A stretch of DNA of 42,214 nucleotides, taken from Polymorphobacter sp. (GTDB lineage Bacteria; Pseudomonadota; Alphaproteobacteria; Sphingomonadales; Sphingomonadaceae). Below, one piece after another: positions 9,947 through 13,116 of this stretch. Below the pieces are notes generated by a model, which saw only the letters and a program-made list of their open reading frames with translations, made no database searches and was not told where the DNA came from. How positions within the stretch are numbered: the first letter of the stretch is position 1; each line of letters opens with the position of its first letter. The position numbers were made by a program, and so were the translations under genes. The stretch spans positions 1 to 42,214 of the forward strand of contig NZ_JANYGL010000076.1 of the NCBI RefSeq assembly GCF_025362435.1, given 5' to 3'.

Positions 9947-10732
9947 CTAACCCCGGGCGAGACTGTCGACCTGGCCCATGATCTGGTTGAGCGGCGACAC
10001 GCCCTCGGTTGGCGCGTCGAGACGACGCGACGGCAGCAGGCCCTCGTTGAGGATGATCTCGAGCGCCGCGCGCCCGCGAGCAACCCGGCTCTTTATCGTG
10101 CCGACCGCGCAGTTGCAGATCGAAGCCGCTTCCTCATAGGCAAACCCACCCGCACCGACGAGGATCAGCGCCTCGCGCTGCGCCTGTGGCAACTGGAGCA
10201 GGCCGCGCTGAAGATCGGACAAATCGATCTGGCGATCCTGCCCGGCAGGCATCGCCAGCAACCGGTCGGCGGTGAAGTCGTCCCATTCGCCCTTGAAGCG
10301 CGCGCGGCGCATCTGGCTGAGGAACAGGTTGCGCAGGATGATGAAGGTCCAGGCGCGCATGTTCGTCCCGGCCTGGAAGCGGTCGCGCGCCGCCCACGCC
10401 TTGAGTAGCGTCTCCTGAACGAGATCGTCGGCGAGGTCGCGGCTGCCCGACAGCGAGCGCCCGAAGGCACGCAAATGGGGAATGACCTGCGCCAGCTGGG
10501 TCTTGAAATCGCCATCCGACAGCGCCTCGGGACGGACATAGACTGCCTTTTCCTCGCCCTCGCCGAGCTTGGCCAGCAGGTCGGCGAACATCGGCGGCAG
10601 TTCGGCATCGGCAGCGTCGGCGAAAGCCGTCCGCAGATACGAACCGATGTCGCGAACCGCCTCGGAATGCGTGGCAGCCGCAACAGGCTTCGCGCGCGTC
10701 GCATTGCGCGCCTTGCCGGCAACATAGGTCAT
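9947..10732 (-). CDS. ecfG: EcfG-family general stress response sigma factor with N-terminal NepR-like extension
   Basis: Sigma-70 region 2/4: FKTQLAQVIPHLRAFGRSLSGSRDLADDLVQETLLKAWAARDRFQAGTNMRAWTFIILRNLF...LPQAQREALILVGAGGFAYEEAASICNCAVGTIKSRVARGRAAL. About 70 aa precede the sigma domain and contain IGSYLRTAFADAADAELPPMFADLLAKLG. Confidence 0.93.
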   Translation of the reverse strand: MTYVAGKARNATRAKPVAAATHSEAVRDIGSYLRTAFADAADAELPPMFADLLAKLGEGEEKAVYVRPEALSDGDFKTQLAQVIPHLRAFGRSLSGSRDLADDLVQETLLKAWAARDRFQAGTNMRAWTFIILRNLFLSQMRRARFKGEWDDFTADRLLAMPAGQDRQIDLSDLQRGLLQLPQAQREALILVGAGGFAYEEAASICNCAVGTIKSRVARGRAALEIILNEGLLPSRRLDAPTEGVSPLNQIMGQVDSLARG

Positions 10733-10769
10733 GACGGGTCTCCGGATCGCGCGCGAATTTGTTTCGCTA

Positions 10770-10922
10770 TCAGCGATAGATGAGCAACAGTGCAGCAAAT
10801 GCAATAACCACGACCACCAGCGAGATGATCAAGACGTTGCGGTTGGCGACTGTCTTCGATCCGGCGCGGGTCTCGGTCGTGGTTTGGACGATGGGTTCGT
10901 CGGGGTTCTGCTTGGGGTCCAT
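10770..10922 (-). CDS. 50-aa single-TM small protein between phyR and ecfG (not in ORF track)
   Basis: Translated by hand: MDPKQNPDEPIVQTTTETRAGSKTVANRNVLIISLVVVVIAFAALLLIYR*. Hydrophilic N-terminus plus about 20-aa C-terminal TM helix; co-directional with phyR and ecfG in the 200-bp gap. Confidence 0.7.
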   Translation of the reverse strand: MDPKQNPDEPIVQTTTETRAGSKTVANRNVLIISLVVVVIAFAALLLIYR

Positions 10923-10933
10923 CACGCGCTTCC

Positions 10934-11731
10934 TTAAGACGTAAAGCTTGCGGTCGAGTTGAAAAACAGCGCCTGGGCGATCGCCGCCTTCACCGTCGAG
11001 CGCTGGAACGGCTTGGTGATGAGGAAGGTCGGTTCGGGGCGCTCACCGGTCAGCAGGCGCTCGGGGAAGGCGGTGATGAAGATCACCGGCACGCTGAATT
11101 CGGCAAGGATGTCCTTGACCGCGTCTATGCCCGAACTCGCGTCGGCAAGCTGGATGTCGGCGAGGACGAGGCCGGGCTTGGCCGACTTCGCCAGCGCGAC
11201 GGCTTCGTCGCGGGTGACCGCGACGCCGGTGACGTCGTGGCCGAGGTCATGGACGATCGATTCGAGATCCATCGCGATGATCGGCTCGTCTTCGATGATG
11301 AGGACGCGTGTCGCGGTCTGACGGTCGATCTCGGCGAGCGCCTCGGCGACGAGGCTGGCAACGTCGCTGGGCGTAGCGTCGATCAGATAGGCGGCATCGT
11401 CGTTGGTGAACCCCTCCATCGCAGTCAGCAGCAAGGCTTGGCGCGACAGCGGCGTGATCGCGGCGAGGCGGTCCTGCGCGACGCGCTCGAACGCGGCAGT
11501 GTTGGTCGGCTCGGGGGCGACATCGACGTTCGCCGTCGACCAGATCGCATGGAAGGTCTTGTAGAGGCCGAGCCGGGCGTCGACGTCGCGGGGAAAATCG
11601 CCGGGAGCGCTGACGATCGCCTCGAGGGCCGCGCGAACGAAGGCGTCACCGTGGCTCTGGCTTCCGGTCAAGGCGCGGGCATAACGGCGGAGATACGGCA
11701 GGTGTGGCGCAATTTCCGAAGCTAGCGACAT
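10934..11731 (-). CDS. phyR: PhyR general stress response regulator (sigma-like domain + receiver)
   Basis: N-terminal sigma-like ...LPYLRRYARALTGSQSHGDAFVRAALEAI... and C-terminal receiver RVLIIEDEPIIAMDLESIVHDLGHDVTGVAVTRDEAVALAKSAKPGLVLADIQLADASSGIDAV. Confidence 0.96.
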   Translation of the reverse strand: MSLASEIAPHLPYLRRYARALTGSQSHGDAFVRAALEAIVSAPGDFPRDVDARLGLYKTFHAIWSTANVDVAPEPTNTAAFERVAQDRLAAITPLSRQALLLTAMEGFTNDDAAYLIDATPSDVASLVAEALAEIDRQTATRVLIIEDEPIIAMDLESIVHDLGHDVTGVAVTRDEAVALAKSAKPGLVLADIQLADASSGIDAVKDILAEFSVPVIFITAFPERLLTGERPEPTFLITKPFQRSTVKAAIAQALFFNSTASFTS

Positions 11732-11881
11732 CTATAGGCCCTCATTGAAAACAGAATATTTCCGCGCGGATGAAATGTGCTTAGACGCTTGCACACCGAA
11801 CGAACAGATGGACCGCTTTTTTGTTTCCGGTTTGTAACGATTGTCGATACACGGTCCAAACTTGTTAGGGATCTGCTCATA

Positions 11882-12049
11882 GTGACGCCCGCAGTCCCAC
11901 ACCCCGAACCGGGTGCTCCGCACGACCGTCCCCATCCGGCGGCGGAACGTGCTGCGGCAATTGGGTCGCGGTTGCGACAAATTTTCGACGACGCTGCCGC
12001 CGAACCGATGCCCCAGGCGTTCGAGGACCTGTTGCGCAAACTAGGTTAG
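11882..12049 (+). CDS. nepR: NepR family anti-sigma factor
   Basis: GTG-initiated 55 aa: VTPAVPHPEPGAPHDRPHPAAERAAAIGSRLRQIFDDAAAEPMPQAFEDLLRKLG; canonical NepR core; divergent from phyR. Confidence 0.85.
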   Translation: MTPAVPHPEPGAPHDRPHPAAERAAAIGSRLRQIFDDAAAEPMPQAFEDLLRKLG

Positions 12050-12066
12050 GTTTGGATGCCAGGAGC

Positions 12067-13116
12067 ATGACGGGTTCGGCGGGGAGAGTATTGGTACGCC
12101 AACTCCACGAATGGCCGCTGTCGGTGAAGGTGATCGTGGCTTTGACCGCGGCACTGCTGCCGCTTGGCGCCCTCGCGACGTTTGTCACGCTCTCGGCTTA
12201 TCGCGCCTTGCTGTTTCATTCCGGGGAAGTTTCGGCAAGCCGGTGGGTAGGCCTCGCGTTGCCGCTGTTGATGTGGCTCGCTGCGCTGCTGATCGGCTGG
12301 CTGGTTGCCGACCGACTTCTGGTTCAGCCCTTGACGCGAATGCGCGCCGCGGTGGAGCGCTATACCGCTGGCGAAACGACGATCCGGATTGGCCGGACCG
12401 ACTATCTGAGCGCCGAAATGACCGCTCTTGCGGCGGCGTTCGACCGGCTAGCGAACGACAGTGCGACCCATGACGCGGCGATGCGCGACGCGCTCGACGA
12501 ACAGAAAAGATTGACCCGCGAGGTTCATCATCGGGTCAAGAACAATCTCCAGATCGTCGCCAGCCTGTTGTCGTTGCAGGCGCGCGAAACGACGAGCAGC
12601 GAGGTCGGGCGCGCGTATTCGGCGATCCAAGCGCGGGTCGGCGCGCTCGCGCTCGTGCACCGCTGGATGTACGACGGCGACGCGGCGTACGGGGTCGACC
12701 TGCGCGCACTCGCGAACGACCTTTCGGCTGCACTCGAGCAGAATATCGCGGCGGTCGAGGGCGCCGCACCCCGGATCAAGGTCGACGTCGAGCGCGTCGT
12801 CGTCGCGCAGGACACTGCGGTGCCCGTAGCGTTCCTGATCACCGAACTGATTGCCCTCGCGGCGCGGCTCAGCGCACCGGAACCCGCCGAAGCGGTGATC
12901 GAGGCGCGCTCGCTCGCGAACGGCACCGCGACGCTATCGATCAAAGCTGCGATCTTCTGCGATGATGCGCTGCTCGACAAGGCAAAGCCTTCGGTCCGCA
13001 TCATCACCGGGATGGCCCGGCAGATGCGCGCGCCGCTGACCCATTATCCGGGCGACTGCAGCTATCGTATCGAGTTCGCCGTCCCGTCGCCTGTCGTTGC
13101 GAAGAGCGAAGGTTAA
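12067..13116 (+). CDS. PhyP-like HAMP/HisKA_2 sensor kinase-like protein with degenerate ATPase domain
   Basis: Two TM segments flanking a short loop, HAMP-like region, intact H-box LTREVHHRVKNNLQIVASLLSLQAR; located directly after nepR. Confidence 0.88.
   Translation: MTGSAGRVLVRQLHEWPLSVKVIVALTAALLPLGALATFVTLSAYRALLFHSGEVSASRWVGLALPLLMWLAALLIGWLVADRLLVQPLTRMRAAVERYTAGETTIRIGRTDYLSAEMTALAAAFDRLANDSATHDAAMRDALDEQKRLTREVHHRVKNNLQIVASLLSLQARETTSSEVGRAYSAIQARVGALALVHRWMYDGDAAYGVDLRALANDLSAALEQNIAAVEGAAPRIKVDVERVVVAQDTAVPVAFLITELIALAARLSAPEPAEAVIEARSLANGTATLSIKAAIFCDDALLDKAKPSVRIITGMARQMRAPLTHYPGDCSYRIEFAVPSPVVAKSEG

What the first reader, a model, noticed from the sequence alone, without database searches (positions are those of the whole stretch)
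10553..10663. EcfG sigma factor carries a NepR-like anti-sigma segment in its own N-terminus
Before the sigma region-2 start (about residue 74 from MTYV) the protein reads VRDIGSYLRTAFADAADAELPPMFADLLAKLG. Aligned without gaps to the stand-alone NepR of the same locus (AAAIGSRLRQIFDDAAAEPMPQAFEDLLRKLG, 11882..12049), 17 of 32 residues are identical by hand count. NepR is the anti-sigma factor that binds EcfG and is titrated by PhyR~P. A cis-encoded NepR-like module could autoinhibit the sigma factor, interact directly with PhyR, or be a relic of a nepR-ecfG gene fusion. I cannot say from here how widespread this is.
Basis: partly seen in the sequence, partly recalled or inferred. Interest (0 to 1): 0.8.

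Follow-up and report, generated by a model that had tools for sequence, protein, structure and literature searches.

The report
Sigma factor with built-in NepR anti-sigma module
The master stress-response sigma factor of this uncultured sphingomonad carries a conserved copy of its own inhibitor (NepR) at its front end, a fusion previously reported only from Methylobacterium relatives; it appears to have arisen separately here and in some related bacteria is the only recognisable NepR left, which makes the fusion's purpose testable.

Summary
Residues 26-57 of the EcfG sigma factor (ORF 9947..10732, minus) are NepR-like: 17/32 identities to the locus's free NepR, versus a maximum of 12 in 100,000 shuffles, and NepR-profile E-values of 3.5e-5 to 2.8e-6. 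The same fusion occurs in 21 of 399 same-family genomes (7 genera, including Glacieibacterium, Pacificimonas and Sphingosinicella microcystinivorans) and, in a 385-genome class sample, otherwise only in one Methylobacterium-like genome. NepR-like EcfG extensions were published for Methylobacteriaceae and stated to occur nowhere else (PMC4814048); here the two fused groups do not form one EcfG clade (AU p = 0.011 and 0.0024), so an independent origin is likely. It is not a decayed relic: dN/dS of the fused core (0.15) matches that of the free NepR (0.12) in the window's genus. In Sphingosinicella (5 of 6 genomes, one a single contig) and in G008 of genus g4 no free NepR is detectable; in Sphingosinicella the fused core is as constrained as the sigma domains (dN/dS 0.04). 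Residues matching those tested for NepR-PhyR binding are kept. Most likely it is a tethered NepR that sits on its own sigma and is released by PhyR~P. Conservation is shown; mechanism is inferred.

The parts
9947..10732 (-). ecfG, sigma factor with NepR-like N-terminus (261 aa)
   Evidence: Pfam Sigma70_r2 and Sigma70_r4_2 over cut-off; best PDB match 5uxx, RpoE/NepR complex of Bartonella quintana
10553..10663 (-). NepR-like cis module as reported (residues 24-60; core 26-57)
   Evidence: 17/32 identity, 0 of 100000 shuffles as high; PF18557 E 1.8e-5; profile of free NepRs E 2.8e-6; AF2 helices 29-38 and 47-58
10517..10558 (-). linker between NepR-like module and sigma region 2 (residues 59-72), length variable in relatives
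   Evidence: alignment
10773..10922 (-). small single-TM peptide gene between phyR and ecfG (MDPKQ..LLLIYR)
   Evidence: phmmer matches at the same position in most related loci; no Pfam family
10934..11731 (-). phyR (PhyR sigma-like domains plus receiver)
   Evidence: PF22029, PF22233 and Response_reg over cut-off
11882..12049 (+). free nepR
   Evidence: PF18557 37 bits, E 2.6e-9
12067..13116 (+). HisKA_2/HWE-type histidine kinase following nepR
   Evidence: PF07568 and PF07536 over cut-off

Best explanation
The EcfG of this lineage is a nepR-ecfG gene fusion kept by selection. The N-terminal helix-Leu/Ile-Pro-helix module (residues about 26-57) is a tethered NepR that binds the NepR site on its own sigma2/sigma4 and holds the sigma factor in check; phosphorylated PhyR, through its sigma-like domain, captures the tethered module and frees the sigma for RNA polymerase. 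In the window's genus it works beside a free NepR, where it would also compete with that free NepR for the same surface and so set the threshold. In Sphingosinicella (g107) and in G008 of genus g4 it appears to have taken over the role of the free NepR, giving a cis partner switch with one protein fewer. Shown here: homology, conservation, selection, apparent lack of free NepR, retained PhyR-binding positions. Inferred: intramolecular binding, inhibition, release by PhyR~P.
For: NepR profile hits and 17/32 identity. Same fusion in 5 genomes of the window's genus and 21 genomes/7 genera of 399 in the family, with a clean score gap (at least 100 bits fused, at most 85 bits unfused). Fused core dN/dS 0.15 (0.05-0.31) against 0.12 (0.04-0.23) for the free NepR core of the same genomes; 0.04 (0.01-0.11) in Sphingosinicella against 0.05 for sigma2 and 0.44 for the linker. 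No free NepR found by PF18557 in G114, S. microcystinivorans and G008 or by the sensitive profile A2 in those and in G560, G561, G563, G564, while A2 finds the divergent Pacificimonas free NepRs; phyR and kinase remain beside ecfG there. G30, L33, R34, F/Y37, P46, F49, L53 and L56 are kept in all 17 fused proteins; L33, R34, F37 and F49 correspond to L32, R33, Y36 and M48 of S. melonis NepR, chosen as PhyR-NepR contact residues, of which L32 and Y36 reduced function when changed (PMC6599016). Two predicted helices around the Pro break. In M. extorquens only EcfG1 truncated of its NepR-like extension binds NepR in vitro and in two-hybrid (PMC4814048).
Against: No intramolecular docking could be shown: AF2 pTM is 0.40-0.41 and the sigma domain arrangement does not match NepR-bound 5uxx (rmsd 7.7-9.6 A). 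Fused modules have lost the Glu that is invariant in the 20 free NepRs compared (position 43; kept in 2 of 17) and changed D/Q38 to Ala, with gained hydrophobics at 32 and 48, so binding may differ from NepR's. In M. extorquens full-length EcfG1 complements and pulls down NepR in vivo (PMC4814048), so an extension need not abolish activity. In the window's genus the core is not distinguishably more constrained than the linker (0.15 vs 0.14).
Confidence: 0.52

Rival explanations
1. Occlusion rather than inhibition: the cis module covers the NepR site and makes this EcfG partly resistant to free NepR, giving higher basal activity or a different threshold, without itself blocking RNA polymerase.
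For: M. extorquens full-length EcfG1 does not bind NepR in vitro, the truncated form does, and both isoforms complement a sextuple mutant (PMC4814048). The window genome has both a free and a fused NepR. Loss of Glu43 and D38 and gain of hydrophobics could mean permanent packing.
Against: Sphingosinicella and G008 have no detectable free NepR to be resistant to, yet the core is under strongest constraint in Sphingosinicella.
Confidence: 0.22
2. PhyR docking or feedback: the segment is a NepR2-like PhyR-binding element that recruits or titrates PhyR on EcfG, not an anti-sigma for its own sigma.
For: PhyR-contact residues retained; S. melonis NepR2 binds PhyR, probably not EcfG, and damps the response (PMC6599016). 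The Glu conserved in free NepR is lost in fused modules.
Against: The spacing from L33 to F49 equals that of canonical NepR (L32 to M48), not NepR2 (L31 to M46; PMC6599016). In Sphingosinicella nothing recognisable would then restrain EcfG.
Confidence: 0.13
3. Neutral relic of an old nepR-ecfG fusion without function.
For: The extension is absent from the neighbouring Sphingomonas-type EcfG clade, so it is dispensable there.
Against: dN/dS well below 1 and similar to free NepR or sigma; hallmark residues invariant in 17 proteins.
Confidence: 0.08
4. The extension is not translated; EcfG starts downstream.
For: Methylobacterium EcfG1 has a second, shorter isoform from a start 14 residues in (PMC4814048).
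Against: Conserved ATG and reading frame; GGAG upstream in the window; no conserved start between module and sigma2; amino-acid-level constraint.
Confidence: 0.03

Closest known systems
EcfG proteins of Methylobacteriaceae (M. extorquens EcfG1-6; PMC4814048)
   Same: About 55-aa NepR-like N-terminal extension fused in frame to an ECF15/EcfG sigma; published as a probable ancient nepR-ecfG fusion of unknown function. Re-found here on Methylobacterium and Microvirga plasmids.
   Different: Separate EcfG clade (held together with the sphingomonad fusions: AU p = 0.0024 and 0.011); in M. extorquens no ecfG lies at the phyR locus (PMC4814048), and the linker differs; the sphingomonad genes sit beside phyR and in some genera no free NepR is detectable.
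Canonical NepR-EcfG-PhyR partner switch (S. melonis Fr1, C. crescentus)
   Same: All parts (kinase, PhyR, NepR, EcfG) are at the locus; module keeps NepR hallmark residues.
   Different: NepR sequence is also covalently attached to EcfG; invariant Glu lost, A38 and hydrophobic 32/48 gained in fused modules.
NepR2 of S. melonis Fr1 (PMC6599016)
   Same: NepR-like paralogue beside ecfG, retains the L and F residues needed for function, divergent elsewhere.
   Different: Free protein with a shorter L-to-M spacing; binds PhyR and probably not EcfG.
ECF sigma factors with fused anti-sigma or regulatory extensions (IutY/ECF243, ECF36, ECF41; PMC8999054)
   Same: Regulator in cis on an ECF sigma.
   Different: Other regulator families; IutY and ECF36 are membrane-linked, with IutY released by proteolysis, not by partner switching.

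Membership tests
EcfG (ECF15) sigma factor | Sigma region 2 and region 4 of ECF type, nearest to EcfG | tested here: met
   Pfam hits over cut-off; best PDB match is an EcfG-type sigma; groups with sphingomonad EcfGs
EcfG (ECF15) sigma factor | Gene beside nepR and phyR | tested here: met
   phyR, nepR and HWE/HisKA_2 kinase adjacent
EcfG (ECF15) sigma factor | Directs transcription from GGAAC-N16/17-CGTT promoters | not testable with these tools
   Strict consensus absent from the window; needs in vitro transcription
NepR (PF18557) | Profile match | tested here: met
   26.7 bits, over cut-off, in genome search; 23.8 bits, E 3.5e-5, just below cut-off, in hmmscan; S. microcystinivorans homologue 28.3 bits
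NepR (PF18557) | Residues tested in NepR-PhyR binding (L32, R33, Y36, M48 in S. melonis) | tested here: met
   L33, R34, F/Y37, F49 in 17/17 fused proteins; position 48 of S. melonis is M, here F
NepR (PF18557) | Invariant Glu after helix 1 (20/20 in free NepRs compared) | tested here: not met
   E43 in 2 of 17 fused proteins; the window's own has A43
NepR (PF18557) | Stand-alone small anti-sigma that binds EcfG and PhyR | tested here: not met
   It is part of the sigma protein; binding not testable here
NepR-fused EcfG of Methylobacteriaceae | NepR-like N-terminal extension on EcfG | tested here: met
   Alignment A3
NepR-fused EcfG of Methylobacteriaceae | Common descent of the fused protein | tested here: not met
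   One-clade hypothesis rejected, p-AU 0.0024 and 0.0107, long branches present
NepR-fused EcfG of Methylobacteriaceae | Full-length does not bind NepR in vitro, truncated form does | not testable with these tools
   needs protein work

The most novel reading that the evidence does not exclude
A nepR-ecfG fusion evolved a second time, in Sphingomonadales, and in Sphingosinicella (and G008 of genus g4) the tethered NepR has replaced the free one, so that the general stress response runs as a cis partner switch: kinase, PhyR and a self-inhibiting sigma factor that PhyR~P opens.
Probability: 0.45. Interest if true: 0.78.

Novelty: new variant of a known kind. Interest (0 to 1): 0.6.

Why it matters
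The literature says NepR-like EcfG extensions occur only in Methylobacteriaceae and that their function is unknown (PMC4814048). This adds a probable second origin, shows the module is under selection, and supplies natural strains (Sphingosinicella, including cultured S. microcystinivorans) in which no other NepR is recognisable, so one deletion can test whether a cis anti-sigma is sufficient. It would also be a case of a three-protein partner switch reduced to two proteins.

Tried and rejected
EcfG-type promoter search in the window: none at the locus with the strict consensus. Class-wide search with a full-length alignment was uninformative because the extension columns were dropped; replaced by alignment A3. 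My first NepR HMM ('stand-alone only') was slightly contaminated by five fused cores from loci truncated before the sigma domain (seen); conclusions rest on PF18557 and the clean profile A2 instead. The PF18557-only absence of free NepR in two Pacificimonas genomes was false: A2 finds divergent ones. Apparent extensions in G164, G644, G357 and G484 contain stop codons and are not fusions; where inspected they are separate or overlapping nepR/ecfG frames.

Full report
WHAT IS THERE. The window holds a general stress response locus: nepR and a HisKA_2/HWE kinase on the plus strand (11882..12049; 12067..13116), divergent from phyR (10934..11731), a small single-TM peptide (10773..10922) and ecfG (9947..10732) on the minus strand. 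EcfG has 261 residues; sigma region 2 starts at about residue 73. Residues 26-57 align without gaps to the free NepR with 17 identities in 32; 100,000 shuffles reached at most 12. Pfam NepR matches at E = 1.8e-5 (26.7 bits, above the 25.7 cut-off, six-frame search) and 3.5e-5 (23.8 bits, just below it). A profile made only of free NepRs (A2) matches at 2.8e-6. The start ATG, preceded by GGAG in the window, and the whole extension are conserved in four other genomes of the genus; no later start between module and sigma2 is conserved.

HOW WIDESPREAD. A profile spanning the NepR module and the beginning of sigma2 (A3) separates fused from unfused EcfGs cleanly. In 399 genomes of the same family it finds 22 fused EcfGs in 21 genomes and 7 of 96 genera (at least 100 bits; the unfused score at most 85 and align mostly from the linker on). 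Named members found by a separate scan are lichen-derived and other Sphingomonadaceae MAGs, Glacieibacterium frigidum, three Pacificimonas species and Sphingosinicella microcystinivorans. Most Sphingomonas, including S. melonis, have only a short N-terminus without the module. In 385 genomes across the class only the window's genome and G456 are positive; G456 is Methylobacterium-like, one of its sigma cores being identical to that of a M. bullatum replicon.

KNOWN PRECEDENT. Francez-Charlot et al. 2016 (PMC4814048) report a NepR-like extension of about 55 aa on M. [quoted passage not shown] Only the truncated EcfG1 binds NepR in vitro and in two-hybrid assays, although full-length isoforms pull down NepR in vivo and complement. 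I recovered Methylobacterium and Microvirga examples from plasmids. The sigma-core tree places them apart from the sphingomonad fusions, and forcing both into one clade is rejected (p-AU 0.0024; 0.0107 with more rows), whereas one clade of all sphingomonad fusions is not (p 0.43, 0.71). Long branches are present, so I call the separate origin likely, not proven. The published restriction to Methylobacteriaceae no longer holds.

RELIC OR FUNCTIONAL. Nei-Gojobori dN/dS of the fused core is 0.15 (bootstrap 0.05-0.31) in the window's genus; the free NepR core of the same five genomes gives 0.12 (0.04-0.23). In that genus the linker (0.14) is equally constrained, so the signal there is not specific to the core. 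In Sphingosinicella it is: core 0.04 (0.01-0.11), sigma2 0.05, linker 0.44, tail 0.22. Across 17 fused proteins G30, L33, R34, A38, P46, F49, L53 and L56 are invariant and position 37 is always F or Y. L33, R34, F37 and F49 correspond to L32, R33, Y36 and M48 of S. melonis NepR, selected as PhyR-NepR binding residues; L32 and Y36 (and L31, F35 in NepR2) reduced function when changed to Ala (PMC6599016). Fused modules differ from free NepRs in a consistent way: the Glu at position 43 (20/20 in free NepRs) is nearly always lost, 38 is Ala instead of mostly D/Q, and 32 and 48 are hydrophobic. This fits a module adapted to living in cis, but its meaning is open.

THE GENOMES WITHOUT FREE NEPR. With the sensitive profile A2, the window genome, Glacieibacterium, Pacificimonas and the BWSM_79 MAG show both a free and a fused NepR. 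Five of six genomes of the S. microcystinivorans genus show only the fused copy, among them a single-contig genome (G114 has one further short, insignificant match); the sixth is 78% complete and shows none. At their loci ecfG, phyR and the kinase remain but no nepR is found between or beside them. G008 (genus g4, 99% complete) likewise shows only the fused copy; G627 of genus g21 may too. Limits: short, very divergent NepRs can be missed, and NepR2-type ORFs are mostly invisible to Pfam; I found none next to ecfG in S. microcystinivorans but could not scan whole genomes for that type.

MECHANISM. The simplest reading is a tethered NepR that occupies its own sigma and is pulled off by PhyR~P. 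Where a free NepR persists (window), the module should also compete with it. AlphaFold2 predicts the two NepR helices around the Leu-Pro break (residues 29-38 and 47-58, block pLDDT about 72-85) but pTM 0.40-0.41 and no trustworthy docking. Binding, inhibition and release are therefore inference. Rivals are occlusion against free NepR, PhyR docking in the manner of NepR2, and a neutral relic; the last is the least compatible with the data.

VERDICT. A real, conserved feature; a variant of a published kind, with a probable second origin and lineages in which the fused module seems to be the only NepR.

Noticed in passing
L130:4681-5007(-), L162:4641-4841(-), L188:4635-4817(-), L186:4946-5440(-) and others: 48 of 80 named loci carry a short NepR-like ORF convergent and usually just downstream of ecfG, mostly missed by Pfam; position and sequence fit NepR2 of S. 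melonis Fr1 (PMC6599016)..
   Followed up: partly
L115:4807-4980(-), L116, L117:4763-5161(-), L119:4800-5033(-): In Pacificimonas the only free NepR found lies convergent downstream of ecfG rather than between phyR and the kinase.
   Followed up: partly
window 10773-10922 (-): Small single-TM peptide gene between phyR and ecfG, present at the same position in most related loci, no Pfam family; function unknown.
   Followed up: no
L066 (G017:C46:32400-36000) and L077 (G017:C28): MAG BWSM_79 encodes two EcfGs, both with a NepR-like N-terminus; no phyR was found beside the second one in the stretch fetched.
   Followed up: no
window GSR locus 9947-13116: No strict GGAAC-N-CGTT EcfG promoter upstream of nepR, phyR or ecfG, unlike the autoregulated loci described in the literature.
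   Followed up: no
L219-L223, L118, L032 and other fused ecfG loci: Fused NepR modules have lost the Glu that is invariant in the free NepRs compared (position 43) and share A38, aromatic 32 and hydrophobic 48; a possible signature of cis modules.
   Followed up: partly
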